NCBI GenBank assembly: GCA_011032825.1
Contig: JAADJZ010000015.1
Coordinates: 744,001 to 808,000, forward strand
Length of the DNA stretch: 64,000 nt
Direction: 5' to 3'
Source of the DNA: Massariosphaeria phaeospora
Taxonomy: Eukaryota > Ascomycota > Dothideomycetes > Pleosporales
Position numbers and translations under genes: made by a program. Shown here in pieces: positions 35,920-42,300 of this stretch (position 1 is its first letter; every line of letters begins with the position of its first letter). Under the pieces are notes generated by a model. It worked only from the letters and a program-made list of their open reading frames with translations. It was not told the DNA's origin and did no database searches.

Positions 35920-38900
35920 ATGGAGTACTTTAGCTTGAAGCGCTCGACTGCTGCCGATCGGGGCCAGTCTAACCTCTCTAGCAAGGTCTATGTCCGCTCA
36001 ACGAAGAGTGGCAAGGTACAGAAGATAGTAAGAGAGCTATATCTACGACAAGACATTCCCTGCTCTTCGAACCTCTGCAAATCGTGCTTGGAGATTGCAC
36101 CTACAGACTACTCAAGCAAAGGTGTGTAGGCCTAACTCGTATAAAGAAGCAAAGCTAAATATAAAAGTGGCACCCTTCGTCCTCTCTGACACACCAGCTG
36201 GATCAAAGAAATTCCCAAATGGACAGTACCTCATCCCGGACACTAATGCATTTCTTACCGGGATGGATCTATTCGAAGTTGAAACCGCTTTCCACGACGT
36301 CATTGTGCTACAGACCGTGTTGGAAGAAGTGAAGAATCGATCATTACCACTGTATCATCGCCTAATCGCCCTGACCAGGAATGAAGGAAAGCGTTTCTAT
36401 GTTTTCTTTAATGAGTTTCGCCAGGAGACCTACATTGCTCGAGATTCTGGAGAAACTATCAACGATCGGAACGATAGGGCCGTCCGAAAGGCAGTCCAGT
36501 GGTACAACCAACACATCACTGAAGCTGTTGCTTCCCGCAGCAAGAAGCAAAAACGTGTTCCTGCGGTCGTCATGATCAGCGATGATCGGGACAATCTAAG
36601 AAAAGCCAAATCAGATGGGGTACCCGCGGACACATGTAAGTCGGTACTGATATTGTCTTGAAGCCTATGTTAACACCCTTAGTGTCGGATTTTGTGTCCG
36701 GACTAGAGAATGCAGACGAACTCCTAGACATGATTAGTGCTGCGCAGGAACAGCGAGAAGTCAGGTCCAAAAAGGCCGAGGTCTTTTATCCGGAACACTA
36801 CTCTATGTCCAAGATGATGACTGGTGTCAAAGCTGGCACTATGTATCAGGGCATTTTCAACGTCTCACCCTATAACTATTTAGAAGCGTCTGTGCATGTT
36901 CCGACCTTTGACAAGTCTCTCCTTGTACTTGGCCGAGAGAATGGCAACCGCGCTGTCTCTGCAGATATTGTGGTGGTTGAAATACTGCCCAAAGATCAAT
37001 GGAAGGCCCCCTCTACTAAGATCATTGAAGAGGAAACCTTGAATAAGAACGACAACCCGGAAGCCGAAGAGGGCGAGAATGTGTTTTCCGAGAGGGAACG
37101 TCGCGCACTCCAAGAGGAAGTTAAGCGGGTACATGGCCAGAGCACAGAAGGCAGGCCACAACCCACTGCGAGGGTTGTGGGCATCATCAAACGGAATTGG
37201 AGACAGTACGTTGGTCACATTGATCGAGATTCCGTTCGATCGGCCTCCAAGTCAAGCAGGCAGCAGCAGCAGGTGTTTCTCGTGCCCATGGATAAGCGCA
37301 TCCCGAAAATTAGAATGCGGACCCGACAGGCCGGTGAACTATTGGGTCAGCGCATTCTAGCGACAATAGATTCTTGGGATCGAGATTCGCGGTACCCTGT
37401 TGGCCACTTCGTGCGCTCTCTAGGGGAATTAGAGTCTAAAGGAGCCGAGACCGAAGCACTATTGTTGGAATGGGACGTCCAGTACAAGCCATTCCCAAAA
37501 ACTGTATTGGATTGTTTGCCTGCCGAAGGTCATGATTGGAAAGTTCCAGCCAGTCTCGACGATCCAGGTTGGAAAGGAAGAAAGGATCTCCAGGATCTTC
37601 TCGTATGCAGTATTGATCCCCCTGGCTGCGTCGACATTGATGATGCGCTGCACGCTCGTAAACTTCCGAATGGTAACTTCGAAGTTGGCGTGCATATTGC
37701 AGATGTCTCGCATTTCGTCAAACCTAACAATGCCATGGACAAGGAAGCTAGCCAACGAGGAACAACCGTGTACCTTGTAGACAAGCGCATTGACATGCTG
37801 CCTATGCTTCTGGGGACCGACTTGTGCTCACTCAAACCATATGTCGAGCGATATGCATTCTCAGTCATATGGGAGGTAACACCCGATGCTGACTTGGTAT
37901 CCTCCGAGTTCTCAAAATCGGTCATCCGATCAAGAGAAGCATTCAGCTATGAGCAAGCCCAGATACGCATCGACGACAAGTCTCAACAAGATGATCTGAC
38001 CAACGGAATGAGGACGCTGCTGATGCTCTCCAAGAAGTTGAAACAAAAGCGTATGGAGGCGGGTGCCCTCAACCTTGCCTCTCCTGAAGTCAAAGTTCAA
38101 ACCGAGTCCGAGACCTCTGACCCTGTCGATGTCCAAACGAAACGGCTTCTCGATACAAACTCTCTTGTCGAAGAGTTCATGTTGTTGGCCAATATAAGTG
38201 TCGCTGCCAAGAACTACGAAGCATTTCCGCAGACAGCTCTGCTGCGTCGTCACGGCGCTCCACCAAAGACCAACTTTGAGGAACTGTCGAACCAACTCAA
38301 AATCAAGAAAGGGCTCGAGCTCCGGACTGACAGCTCGAAAGCCTTGGCCGATTCGCTGGACACTTGCGTCGACCCAAAGGAGCCATTTTTCAACACCCTC
38401 GTTAGGATCATGGCGACGCGCTGCATGATGTCTGCCGAGTATTTCTGCGCCGGCACTCAAGCCTATCCAGAGTTCAGACATTACGGTCTTGCGAGCGAGA
38501 TCTATACTCATTTCACGTCTCCCATCCGTCGTTACGCAGATCTGGAAGCGCATCGTCAGCTCGCAGCGGCGATCGACTACGAACAACTAGACCCCAGTCT
38601 CCAGTCAAAACCCAAGCTTGAGGGGGTCTGCAAGAACATCAACGTACGACATCGCAACGCTCAAATGGCCGGCCGCGCATCAATCGAATACTATGTAGGC
38701 CAGGCACTGAAGGGGAAGGATGTGAAGGAGGAGGGACATGTTATGAAGGTCTTCTCGAACGGCTTCGTTGTTTTCGTTCCTAGGTTCGGCATTGAGAGCT
38801 TGATTCGCCTGCGAGATCTGGCAACCCCAGAGCCAGATGCCGAGTTCGATGCGGAGAACTATGTGCTCAACGTCAAGGGTGAGAAGGCAAGGAGCATTGA

Positions 38901-38985
38901 GCTGTTCGAGAAGGTCAATGTGAGGATCACCGATGAGGTCGAGGCGAGCACGGGCAAGAGGAAGGTGCGGTTGAGCTTAGTCTAA
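35920..38985 (+). CDS. DIS3: Exosome catalytic subunit Dis3/Rrp44
   Basis: Three exons (35920-36121, 36168-36635, 36683-38985) give 990 residues. The N-terminus has the CR3 zinc-binding motif IPCSSNLCKSC within the conserved VRELYLRQDIPC context. The PIN endonuclease domain follows (YLIPDTNAFL; VVMISDDRDNLRKA), with its acidic residues present. Cold-shock domains come next. The RNB 3'-5' exonuclease domain carries DPPGCVDIDDALHA, with the catalytic Asp cluster, and EVGVHIADVSHFVKP. The C-terminal S1 domain ends GKRKVRLSLV. Dis3 provides both nuclease activities of the nuclear and cytoplasmic exosome. Introns are 46 and 47 nt long with GTGTGT and GTAAGT donors. Confidence 0.97.
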
Positions 38986-39221: not shown

Positions 39222-39228
39222 AAAAAAA
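39222..39228 (-). terminator. RNA polymerase III terminator
   Basis: A run of seven T on the minus strand, three bases after the tRNA-Ile discriminator base. This is a typical Pol III stop and supports the tRNA call and its 3' end. Confidence 0.8.
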
Positions 39229-39231
39229 GTA

Positions 39232-39352
39232 TGGTCAATGAGGGGGTCGAACCCTCGGCCTAAGGAATGTTAGATAGGTCACTTAACAATAAGTGAGGTG
39301 ACTCACCTTGGCGTTATTAGCACCACGCTCTAACCAACTGAGCTAATCGACC
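39232..39352 (-). tRNA. tRNA-Ile (anticodon AAT) with a 47-nt insertion in the variable loop
   Basis: Read on the minus strand from 39352. The acceptor stem GGTCGAT pairs with ATTGACC, with A as discriminator base. The D arm is GCTC...GAGC. The anticodon arm TGGTG-CTAATAA-CGCCA has the loop anticodon AAT and no intron at the canonical 37/38 site. The T arm is GAGGG-TTCGACC-CCCTC. A-box and B-box sequences are intact. The gene spans 121 nt, but without 39260-39306 it would be an ordinary 74-nt tRNA with the five-base variable loop AGGCC and a G15-C48 Levitt pair. The insertion therefore separates two otherwise perfect halves. Confidence 0.93.
39260..39306 (-). other. Spliceosomal-type intron-like insertion inside tRNA-Ile
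   Basis: On the minus strand this 47-nt segment starts GTGAGTCACC, contains CTAAC with the branch A ten bases before the 3' end, and ends CCTTAG. The flanks are CCAAG| and |GCCGAG. All three signals match the protein-gene introns of this window, and the length matches too (46-60 nt). Between donor and branch is a hairpin, TCACTTA-TTGT-TAAGTGA, with a perfect 7-bp stem. It lies between tRNA positions 45 and 46, not at the site cut by the tRNA-splicing endonuclease. Splicing is inferred, not shown. Confidence 0.7.
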
Positions 39353-42300
39353 TGATTGCATGAATGTTGAAGATTTTCGACCGTACAAAATATATAGCCA
39401 AAGAAACCCTAATATCAGAGCAGCAGGACCGCAACACAGGCCCGGAGAGTGGCAACGTAGTGATTATTTTCGTACAGTCATAGGTTGCTCACTCATTGCT
39501 CTTACCCCACAGTGGAGGGGTCGCAAAATTCATTCGCGCTAGCTGGTGCGGGGCTCAACTCATCTGGGCAATTGTGGTAATGAAAGTGGGAACTAAACTG
39601 TCTGATTGATGATCGGGCGAGAGCCTGCTTATCAGTCTGATTCAGGCTCTCTCCCAGAGCTAATCGTATCTAAGGGGCCTTGGCTCACCCCGTGTTTCCA
39701 CACAGTCGACTCTCAGTACCTTAACACGTCGAACACTTATTCTACATGGTATACTAGCAGGACTGCGATAGATGATTACTGCTACATGTACAGACACCCG
39801 ATTCGTCCAGGATAGCCCGTGCAGGAAAACAGAAGAAACGTGAGGAGCAACTTCTTCACAAAGCGCCAGATGCGCGGTCGTTCGTGCGCACACTTGGACG
39901 CCATACTTCCAGAGTCTTTCCGATGCAAGGAATTCGACTGTTTAATGGACGATAGGTTACTAGACTGCAGAGGCGTCGTTTCTACGATGCAGCTGTATGT
40001 TTTTGAAGCGTGTTTATCAGTTCTGCGCAAGTACTTGGTTGGGCATGTAGCTTCAGAAGCACCGGGAAGGGGGGTGGTTTGGAGACCGAATTGCACGTTG
40101 AGTTACCTGAAGTATCTAAGTGATTTGATGCACACGTGTACTAATTTGGAAGTACGGAGTACATGCTACAGCAAGAACAAGCGCATGCAGACCGACACCG
40201 ACCGAGCTACCTAGTCCATTACCCACCCACAGAAAGCAGTAGACTCCCAACGCAATAACAACGGCGCTTAACAAACACCTCCAAGGAACTTGGAGAAGCT
40301 TGGGGTCGCGGACAGAACGACAGGCTGGGCAGGTCATATGGACATATGAACGAGATCTCTGTGCCACGGTTGCAATTCCGGGACAAAGGGACGCTCGATC
40401 TGCCCTCCAGTCGCACTGGCCGCGACGCTGACCTTGCCACTGCAGTGTCGCTGCAGAAAGCCCATGCATGTGCAATATTCATTTACGGGTTATTGCGGCC
40501 GGGTGTTAGTGTGTGTTGTAGAGTACCCGAGGCGGCGGAAGCGACGGGTATATTGGCTGTAGCAAAGTGGGATGGAGCGCAGCAGGAATTGAATGTCCCC
40601 CACGCGGAGTGGGAGCGGGGTGAATTGGAGATGAGGTGAGATGTATATTTTGCCGGAAGCCGCGTGACGAGTATGTGACATGGTAGGCAGTGAGTTCTAT
40701 TATGGTGGTCCATGTAGGATTTGTTGGTGGTCAGCGTCCTGTCAGATTACTGTACCATGTTGGTGGTGAGGAATTGAATTCACCGTTGACGATGGTTCCG
40801 CGGAGTGCCGTGTGTGGTCAGTCTTCAGGTCTCCCGTTGGAAGGTGGTCATCTTTAGGTGCGGCGGGGCACACTCGTCGGTGATATTGCTGGGATTGGTA
40901 CATTGCCACATGGTAGTTATCACGAACGCGTATGGCGGTTCGCGTCTTCACGAGGTGTGGCCTTGATATTGGGATTTTGCGGATTCGTCAAGGCCTGGTG
41001 ACTATAAGCTTAGACAAGCCTGCTGGAACCGAGATTCGACGACTGTGCCTGGAGGACATGATTCAGCGGATACCCGAGTGGTGGTAGACTGATACTAAAG
41101 TGCCGCAGCTATCCGCTGGTGAAGAGTCTGTGGTGGTCAGCAGGATGGCGGCGGAAACAAGCCCAGCTTCAAACAGTCTCTGTCTGCGACAGTCTGCGAC
41201 AGAGATCACGGCATGTATATGATGAGTTCGTAGGCCTGGTGTGCTGGGAAATGCGCATCCCAACGCTTGACGATACTGGTCACGCCGAGTAGCAGGTTTT
41301 CGACGGAGTCTCGCAAGCTTAGCGTACTTGGTAGAAAGCAGGATGCACTTTGCGAACTATGATTGGCAGAAGTGAAGATTTACTGGACGCGAAGCCACTT
41401 TGTACGACTCCGTACCTTCTCTTTCGGACTTGGTACCGATGACAGCGCTGATCCGAGGCGCCTGGCGTCCGTATTTCCCCAAAGTTGTTTCGCGTCGGGA
41501 AACGGCATCGCTTTCGACACGAACATGGCAAAAGCAAGACAGAGCGCAACATGGCGAGTCTGCGACCTTCAATAACGCCTCGGCCCTCAAGCGGACGACT
41601 GACCGCCAAATGGACTAGCCAGGGTATCCTCGGTATGTGGCGCTGGCGATCGGTGGTCCACGTGCAAGTGGTGCATTTAGCCGTCACGCAATCCAGATTG
41701 CACGGTCCCACTTTCCCAGGAACGGGCGCTTGACGGCTTCACGGCAACGGCAAGACGCAAATCCCAAGTGCTGTTCTACTCGGTGCAGCTACTGTGTCGT
41801 GCCTCCAGCATCTCCCTGTGTTCCTCACCGTCTTTTGTAGACTAACAGTGTTCCGTGGCACTGTTGCGGGAGACTACTCGCACGTAGTTCGCGATCTTGC
41901 CGGGCCGCACTGTGGTGTTAGTGGCTGATCCGAATGTGTTCCTGGGGGATCGGTGTTTCAGACCTCTTCCGGTCAAAGACTCATCTCGGCTCTGGGACCG
42001 TTATGGAGATCATGGAGGGCTCACGCCCCACATGGGAATTTGGGGAAAGAGATATTTGTCTTGACGCTTGTGGTACTGACTCCTGAGTACGAAGTACGGA
42101 GTACAATGAATTGTGATGTGACAAGTTCATCATAACCAGAGCATGCTCCGGTGCCGCTACAAAGGTAAGGGCACGCGCAAGCTACATTTTTGTGATAGGA
42201 TGGTCGCTTTTGGTGTCAAGTCTAGGGTTGCGCGATGATGTGGTCAAAACGGCAAGCCTGCAGGGCCATGATAACCGACAAGCGTTTTTGTTGCGCAAGA

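What the first reader, a model, noticed from the sequence alone, without database searches (positions are those of the whole stretch)
39232..39352. A spliceosomal-type intron inside a tRNA-Ile gene, in the variable loop
Directly seen: both tRNA halves are perfect, and removing 39260-39306 leaves a 74-nt tRNA-Ile(AAT) with all stems, a five-base variable loop and the G15-C48 pair. The removed 47 nt start GTGAGT, contain CTAAC ten bases before the end (counting the branch A) and end TTAG, matching mRNA introns in the same window in signals and length. Established: eukaryotic tRNA introns sit at 37/38 and are cut by the tRNA-splicing endonuclease; spliceosomal introns in other noncoding RNAs are known (U6 snRNA in fission yeast, rDNA in ascomycetes). 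Inference: the spliceosome, not the endonuclease, would have to mature this Pol III transcript, or the gene is dead. I know of no described example in the variable loop of a fungal nuclear tRNA.
Basis: partly seen in the sequence, partly recalled or inferred. Interest (0 to 1): 0.88.

Follow-up and report, generated by a model that had tools for sequence, protein, structure and literature searches.

The report
Spliceosomal-type introns inside fungal tRNA genes
In a filamentous fungus, several nuclear tRNA genes, including every copy found of two essential tRNAs, are interrupted by introns that look like messenger-RNA introns, which suggests that the spliceosome, not only the usual tRNA-splicing enzyme, is needed to make tRNAs.

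Summary
Window 39352..39232 (-) is a tRNA-Ile(AAT) gene; removing 39260-39306 (47 nt, GTGAGT...CTAAC...TTAG) leaves 74 nt identical to the mature form of a sibling gene. The fungus is Massariosphaeria phaeospora. An incomplete survey gave 69 terminator-bearing tRNA genes; 11 of 69 carry an insert outside 37/38: 24/25 (Gly-GCC x3, Arg-TCT), 45/46 (Ile-AAT, Pro-TGG), 52/53 (Glu-CTC), 53/54 (Ser-TGA, Leu-CAA), 58/59 (Ala-AGC, Gly-CCC). Ten of 11 are GT-AG, one is GA-AG; all are 47-56 nt with a CTRAY branch A 11-13 nt from the 3' end. Nine of 11 also keep a 37/38 intron. All three intact Gly-GCC genes and the only Arg-TCT gene found carry it, so removal seems essential. No strict bulge-helix-bulge is present in 11 of 11. 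Best explanation: U2-type spliceosomal introns, gained several times, spliced from Pol III pre-tRNAs. No RNA evidence was available; removal is inferred. Ten literature searches listed no described example.

The parts
39232..39352 (-). tRNA-Ile(AAT) gene with a 47-nt insert
   Evidence: Rfam RF00005 51.7 bits; own-genome tRNA search; ARAGORN tRNA-Ile(aat) only after removal of the insert
39307..39352 (-). 5' exon, tRNA positions 1-45
   Evidence: identical to L019 exon sequence
39260..39306 (-). spliceosomal-type intron at 45/46, 47 nt
   Evidence: only GT..AG register among 4 equivalent ones; shuffle control
39301..39306 (-). 5' splice site GTGAGT
   Evidence: sequence
39269..39273 (-). branch-like CTAAC, branch A 11th from the intron end
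39260..39263 (-). 3' splice site TTAG
39232..39259 (-). 3' exon, tRNA positions 46-73
   Evidence: identical to L019 exon sequence
39243..39253 (-). B box GGTTCGACCCC, contiguous in the DNA
   Evidence: pattern hit C7:783243-783253
39334..39345 (-). A box region TAGCTCAGTTGG, positions 8-19 (name by my reading)
   Evidence: sequence
39389..39396 (-). upstream TATATATT at -44
   Evidence: TATA at -58..-28 is also seen in 35 of 44 ordinary tRNA genes
39222..39228 (-). Pol III-type terminator T7, 3 nt after the gene
   Evidence: 44 of 44 ordinary tRNA genes have T5+ within 45 nt
36122..36167 (+). mRNA intron 1 of the Dis3 gene (comparison), 46 nt, GTGTGT..CTAAA..AAG
   Evidence: P0001 alignment
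36636..36682 (+). mRNA intron 2 of the Dis3 gene (comparison), 47 nt, GTAAGT..TTAAC..TTAG

Best explanation
These are U2-type spliceosomal introns that were gained independently by several Pol III-transcribed tRNA genes of Massariosphaeria phaeospora. The nuclear spliceosome recognises the GT 5' site, CTRAY and YAG in the uncapped pre-tRNA, as it does with the U6 intron of fission yeast, and joins the exons. In 9 of the 11 genes the tRNA-splicing endonuclease and ligase separately remove the ordinary 37/38 intron. The window gene lacks the 37/38 intron and depends on the spliceosomal step alone. Shown: anatomy, signals, exon identity, recurrence, absence of a strict bulge-helix-bulge, promoter-like and terminator sequences. 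Inferred: transcription by Pol III, removal by the spliceosome, order of steps, independent gain.
For: (1) Ten of 11 inserts are GT..AG, 11 of 11 have CTRAY with its A 11-13 nt from the end. Per-gene shuffle frequencies are 0.0011-0.0081 for the ends and 0.023-0.037 for the branch. Of 28 introns that ARAGORN drew in other tRNA genes, boundaries imprecise, 1 is GT..AG and 0 hold CTRAY. (2) Removing exactly the insert yields the right cloverleaf: 9 of 9, Pro-TGG and Ala-AGC. Unspliced, 9 of 9 were missed (3) or given a wrong anticodon (6; one of these, L047, with the right amino acid). (3) Ile-AAT exons equal those of a sibling without the insert. (4) No uninterrupted intact Gly-GCC or Arg-TCT gene was found. 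(5) Between Gly-GCC introns L047 and L094, 17 of 18 positions that I set as splice signals are identical, against 16 of 33 others (Fisher P 0.0008). (6) All 11 have an upstream TATA and T5+ within 45 nt; random points have both in 0.6%. No insert has more than 4 T in a row. (7) mRNA introns in the window have similar length and ends. (8) Precedent: S. [quoted passage not shown]
Against: No RNA data. One of 11 (Gly-CCC L154) begins GA, so that one may be unspliceable. The six U6 genes found have no intron, so there is no in-genome proof that this spliceosome handles Pol III RNA. The two protein-proven mRNA introns (Dis3) do not carry the exact CTRAY at the usual distance, so the match to host introns is not tight. 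A cap helps splicing of mRNA (recalled) and would be missing here. No relative's genome could be searched, so age and conservation are unknown.
Confidence: 0.86

Rival explanations
1. Ectopic tRNA introns removed by the tRNA-splicing endonuclease, as in Cyanidioschyzon merolae and some archaea; the GT..AG look is coincidence.
For: Such introns occur at 25/26, 45/46, 53/54 and 59/60, among others, in archaea, and in the D and T arms in nucleomorphs, with similar ones in C. merolae (PMC4090602, passages, section 5). Ala-AGC has 8 of 10 possible BHB pairs, shuffle P 0.066.
Against: No strict bulge-helix-bulge in 11 of 11; pairing is not clearly better than in shuffled inserts (P 0.066-0.67). GT, AG and CTRAY together in 10 of 11 are not explained. 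Lengths of 47-56 nt exceed the introns that ARAGORN draws in the tRNA genes of this genome (5-35 nt).
Confidence: 0.05
2. Decaying tRNA genes with non-removed insertions; the functional supply comes from other copies.
For: Siblings without the insert exist for Ile-AAT, Glu-CTC, Ser-TGA, Leu-CAA (L045, anticodon by my reading), Ala-AGC and Gly-CCC. PMC4090602 says arm insertions in eukaryotic tRNA genes are mostly in one of many synonymous copies and so supposed pseudogenes. Decayed tRNA-like copies are present here (L152, L153, L159; by eye).
Against: Exons are intact; 11 of 11 keep TATA and terminator; all three intact Gly-GCC genes and the only Arg-TCT and Pro-TGG genes found carry the insert; signals are conserved where the rest of the intron diverged.
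Confidence: 0.06
3. The introns are spliceosomal, but these loci are read by Pol II as part of longer capped transcripts.
For: Would supply a cap and the usual coupling to splicing. Nothing in the data speaks directly for it.
Against: TATA mostly near -44 and T5+ terminators as in ordinary tRNA genes of this genome; A and B boxes in place (and by eye).
Confidence: 0.03

Closest known systems
mRNA-type intron of U6 snRNA in fission yeast
   Same: Pol III transcript, intron of mRNA type, removed by the spliceosome (PMC8917221, passages)
   Different: U6 is not a tRNA and has no second, endonuclease-type intron; the six U6 genes found in this genome have no intron
Ectopic (D-, variable-, T-arm) tRNA introns of Cyanidioschyzon merolae, nucleomorphs and Crenarchaeota
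   Same: Same kind of positions, including 45/46 and 53/54; often with a second intron (PMC4090602; PMC9602550, start of abstract only)
   Different: The archaeal and C. merolae ones are attributed to the tRNA endonuclease on BHB-like structures (how the nucleomorph ones are spliced is called unknown); here there is no strict BHB and there are GT-AG and branch signals
Canonical 37/38 tRNA introns
   Same: Sit in nuclear tRNA genes; 9 of the 11 genes also have one
   Different: Position, length and signals
mRNA intron in the nuclear 18S rDNA of deuteromycetes (Rogers et al. 1993)
   Same: Spliceosomal-type intron in a structural RNA gene (seen only as a reference title)
   Different: rRNA, a Pol I transcript (recalled), not a tRNA
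Introner-like elements of Dothideomycetes
   Same: Spliceosomal intron gain in the same class (PMC4457414, search listing with start of abstract)
   Different: No family of similar copies seen: inserts match only themselves or the sister Gly-GCC copy in 330 kb of held DNA

Membership tests
U2-type spliceosomal intron | GT...AG ends | tested here: met
   10 of 11 inserts; L154 is GA...AG
U2-type spliceosomal intron | branch-point CTRAY at fungal distance from the 3' end | tested here: met
   11 of 11, A 11-13 nt from the end; shuffle frequency 0.023-0.037
U2-type spliceosomal intron | size range of host mRNA introns | tested here: met
   47-56 nt against 46 and 47 nt (Dis3, protein-proven) and 68 and 56 nt (motif-picked, frame-supported) in the window; small sample
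U2-type spliceosomal intron | excised by the spliceosome as a lariat | not testable with these tools
   no RNA data
canonical eukaryotic tRNA intron | position 37/38 | tested here: not met
   positions 24/25, 45/46, 52/53, 53/54, 58/59 (numbering by my count)
BHB-type ectopic tRNA intron | 4-bp helix flanked by 3-nt bulges at both junctions | tested here: not met
   0 of 11 strict; best partial case Ala-AGC 8 of 10 pairs, P 0.066
group I or group II intron | ribozyme core detectable by Rfam | tested here: not met
   only tRNA reaches threshold in the window; inserts are 47-56 nt
tRNA pseudogene | drift of exons, promoter or terminator | tested here: not met
   Ile exons 74/74 identical to sibling; 11 of 11 called correctly after removal; TATA and T5+ in 11 of 11
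introner-like element | many near-identical copies in the genome | tested here: inconclusive
   no copies in 330 kb held; the rest of the 42 Mb was not searched for it

The most novel reading that the evidence does not exclude
A nuclear genome in which the spliceosome is an essential tRNA-maturation machine: at least 11 of 69 surveyed tRNA genes, including all intact Gly-GCC genes and the only Arg-TCT gene found, need it, and most of these pre-tRNAs are matured by two unrelated splicing systems. tRNA supply would thereby be coupled to spliceosome capacity.
Probability: 0.8. Interest if true: 0.94.

Novelty: new variant of a known kind. Interest (0 to 1): 0.91.

Why it matters
tRNA introns are taught as the domain of a protein endonuclease and ligase, mostly at one position. 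The tRNAscan-SE 2.0 paper (PMC8450103, passages) calls eukaryotic tRNA genes limited to one intron. Here tRNA genes that look essential carry a spliceosomal-type intron in the D stem, variable loop or T arm, most often beside the ordinary one. If removal is shown, the spliceosome becomes a required tRNA enzyme in this lineage, splicing of Pol III transcripts gets a second natural system beside U6, and intron gain can be studied in genes whose insert-free sequence is known to the base. There is a practical side: tRNA searches miss or misname these genes (ARAGORN called the unspliced window gene tRNA-Asn), so tRNA sets of other fungi may hold similar errors.

Tried and rejected
Endonuclease/BHB hypothesis: nine inserts scored, all 11 in every equivalent register against shuffles; rejected. 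One search's comparison introns use ARAGORN boundaries that are off by one or more in several rows (L015, L019, L032, L043-L045 and others), and its single 'A-I' pair is present in 7 of 9 inserts, so it does not separate the classes; one search is the one to use.

Selection for Pol III promoter integrity: every insert leaves the A box whole (by eye) and the B box 9-11 of 11 in the DNA (Pro-TGG's own B box is 9 of 11 even when spliced). I first took this as selection, with the intron's AG or GT restoring B-box letters; with random ends the same score arises in 25-100% of trials, so it is only compatible, not evidence.

Mobile intron family: no similarity between insert families, within held DNA only.

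Relatives: the exact Gly-GCC 5' half plus GT gave 0 in viral contigs and genome contigs; these are viral and prokaryote collections, so this says nothing on conservation. Plasmid search of the gene: no match.

Intron-motif searches TAAC../TGAC..AGTTCGANYC gave 18 and 50 places against 69 and 94 for the reversed patterns. re-found L048 and L133, and an ordinary Ile gene (L140) by chance; I recognised none. The other places were not fetched.

Unresolved tRNA-like loci, not counted: L132 (gap of about 185 nt, no T33 by my reading), L145 (32.5 bits), L101 and L102 (no T5 run within 45 nt), L046 (two repeats called SeC and Stop). I found no elongator Met gene.

Full report
Observation. The tRNA covariance model of Rfam matches window 39352-39232 (-) over its whole length at 51.7 bits with a long insert in the variable loop. 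The insert, 47 nt, starts GTGAGT, holds CTAAC with the branch A eleventh from the end, and ends TTAG. Four registers would give the same product; one of them is GT..AG. The spliced product is 74 nt and ARAGORN calls it tRNA-Ile(AAT); unspliced it is called tRNA-Asn(GTT).

Organism. The Dis3 reading frame 36658-38985 is 100% identical to a protein of Massariosphaeria phaeospora on a contig of 1,186,318 bases, the length of contig C7 that holds the window. This is a Dothideomycete of the order Pleosporales.

Siblings. The 26-nt 5' end of tRNA-Ile(AAT) with up to 3 mismatches occurs 3 times in 42 Mb: the window gene, L019 and L140. L019 and L140 have a 15-nt intron at 37/38 and no insert at 45/46. 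The mature form of L019 equals the spliced window gene at 74 of 74 positions. So the window copy lacks the canonical intron and has another one, eight positions further on.

Survey. The genome was searched for tRNAs with Rfam (49 matches; 63 of 1281 first-look candidates scored), with B-box and B-box-plus-terminator patterns (one search lists 100 of 102 places, a capped list of 159, 64, 76), and with 5' halves of Gly-GCC, Ile-AAT, Arg-TCT and Pro/Ala. None of these patterns contains splice signals. Held loci yield 73 distinct ARAGORN calls once the inserts are removed, 69 of them with a T5+ run within 45 nt. This is a lower bound: I found no elongator Met, and genes with a broken B box turn up only through a shared 5' half. 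Some ARAGORN anticodons in that list are wrong by my reading (for example L025, L030, L032, L043-L045), which does not affect the count.

The class. Eleven of 69 carry an insert outside 37/38: Gly-GCC L047 (C10:278759-278888), L094 (C20, about 202,834-202,965) and L097 (C20, from 484,481) and Arg-TCT L130 (C51, about 939,372-939,519), all at 24/25 in the D stem; Ile-AAT (window) and Pro-TGG L155 (C6, from 91,338) at 45/46; Glu-CTC L122 (C48, near 1,821,527) at 52/53; Ser-TGA L048 (C9:884012-884172) and Leu-CAA L133 (C10, near 494,225) at 53/54; Ala-AGC L157 (C1, near 214,072) and Gly-CCC L154 (C11, near 125,185) at 58/59 in the T loop. Position numbers are standard tRNA numbering by my own count. 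Nine of the 11 also have a 37/38 intron; the window gene and Ala-AGC L157 do not.

Signals. Ten of 11 are GT..AG; Gly-CCC L154 reads GAACGT..CAG. All 11 have CTRAY with the A 11 to 13 nt from the end; lengths are 47-56 nt. Shuffling each insert gives GT..AG in any equivalent register with frequency 0.0011-0.0081, and the branch motif in place with 0.023-0.037. Counting Gly-GCC once there are nine families, eight of them GT..AG; multiplying the per-family values by hand gives less than 1e-30 if they are independent and the shuffle model is accepted. In a mechanical test every GT..(CTRAY)..YAG span of 40-75 nt in 330 kb of held sequence (959 spans; 162 records, rich in tRNA loci by design) was removed; tRNAs spanning the junction appeared at exactly ten loci, the ten GT-AG genes above (21 hits, several overlapping spans a locus). 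Control motifs gave 8 hits of 932 spans (GA; at L154, L001 and overlapping spans of L155, L027, L094), 3 of 1075 (reversed motif; spans of L155 and L157) and 0 of 1003 (CA).

Function. All three intact Gly-GCC genes found carry the intron. Of the other four places, L152 and L153 are decayed fragments, L154 is Gly-CCC and L001 Gly-TCC (fragments by eye). L152 keeps the exon spacing without the insert, by eye, so an insert-free state probably existed. The only Arg-TCT gene found carries it. Unless an uninterrupted copy lies outside the assembly or beyond 3 mismatches in the 5' half, the organism cannot read GGC/GGU and AGA without removing these inserts (decoding rules recalled). Between two diverged Gly-GCC introns, 17 of 18 positions that I set as splice signals are identical against 16 of 33 others. 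All 11 genes have TATA within 60 nt upstream and T5+ within 45 nt downstream; among 44 ordinary tRNA genes 35 have TATA in -58..-28 and 44 have T5+; random points have both in 0.6%. No insert has a T run above 4, so none would be expected to stop Pol III (recalled rule).

Mechanism. The strict bulge-helix-bulge of an ectopic endonuclease intron is absent in 11 of 11, and partial pairing does not clearly exceed shuffles (the best is Ala-AGC, 8 of 10, P 0.066). The anatomy is that of U2-type introns. mRNA introns in the window have similar length and ends: Dis3 46 and 47 nt (protein-proven; the first with CTAAA and AAG, the second with TTAAC and TTAG, so neither has the exact CTRAY there), and 68 and 56 nt in a dehydrogenase-like gene (CTAAC and CTGAC; picked by motif, supported by an open frame). 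Fission yeast U6 shows that a Pol III transcript can be spliced this way (PMC8917221, passages). I therefore read these as spliceosomal introns in pre-tRNAs, with the 37/38 intron left to the endonuclease. The order of the two steps and the enzyme are inferred. The six U6 genes found have no intron.

Literature. Ten searches listed no paper whose title or abstract start reports spliceosomal introns in tRNA genes, nor did the passages I read in five papers; that holds only for the open-licence library searched. A review (PMC4090602, section 5 read in full) treats D- and T-arm insertions in eukaryotic tRNA genes as mostly pseudogenes outside algae. PMC8450103 (passages) describes non-canonical intron models for archaea. 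PMC9860276 on introners has no mention of tRNA, Pleosporales or Massariosphaeria (term search of its text).

Verdict. The weakest points are the lack of RNA data and of relatives.

Noticed in passing
L135, L136, L137, L141, L149 (G000 C12:126190, C12:1320390, C23:85540, C14:635525, C12:505310): TATA-like box, then 100-200 nt on a T5-T8 run, then a B-box-like GTTCGA within about 25 nt and a further T run; no Rfam match. Three of six U6 genes here also have GTTCGA just downstream, so these may be unknown small Pol III RNAs with a downstream B box.
   Followed up: partly
L150 (G000 C9:113440-113790): U5 snRNA (Rfam 59.4 bits) followed at once by a B-box-like sequence and T7, with TATATA upstream: possibly a Pol III-read U5.
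   Followed up: partly
L154 (G000 C11:125010-125230): Gly-CCC with a T-loop insert that begins GA instead of GT but keeps CTAAT and CAG: a possible natural splice-site loss.
   Followed up: partly
L152, L153 (G000 C20:464480, C20:549890); L159 (C1:1331500): Decayed Gly-like and Ala-like tRNA copies, by eye; L152 has the exon spacing without the 24/25 insert.
   Followed up: partly
L132 (G000 C2:973810-974160): tRNA-like ends with paired acceptor and T stems around a gap of about 185 nt; isotype unclear.
   Followed up: no
L043/L044 (G000 C19:367945, C21:448382): Two identical Leu-type tRNA genes on different contigs with similar downstream sequence, probably a recent duplication.
   Followed up: no
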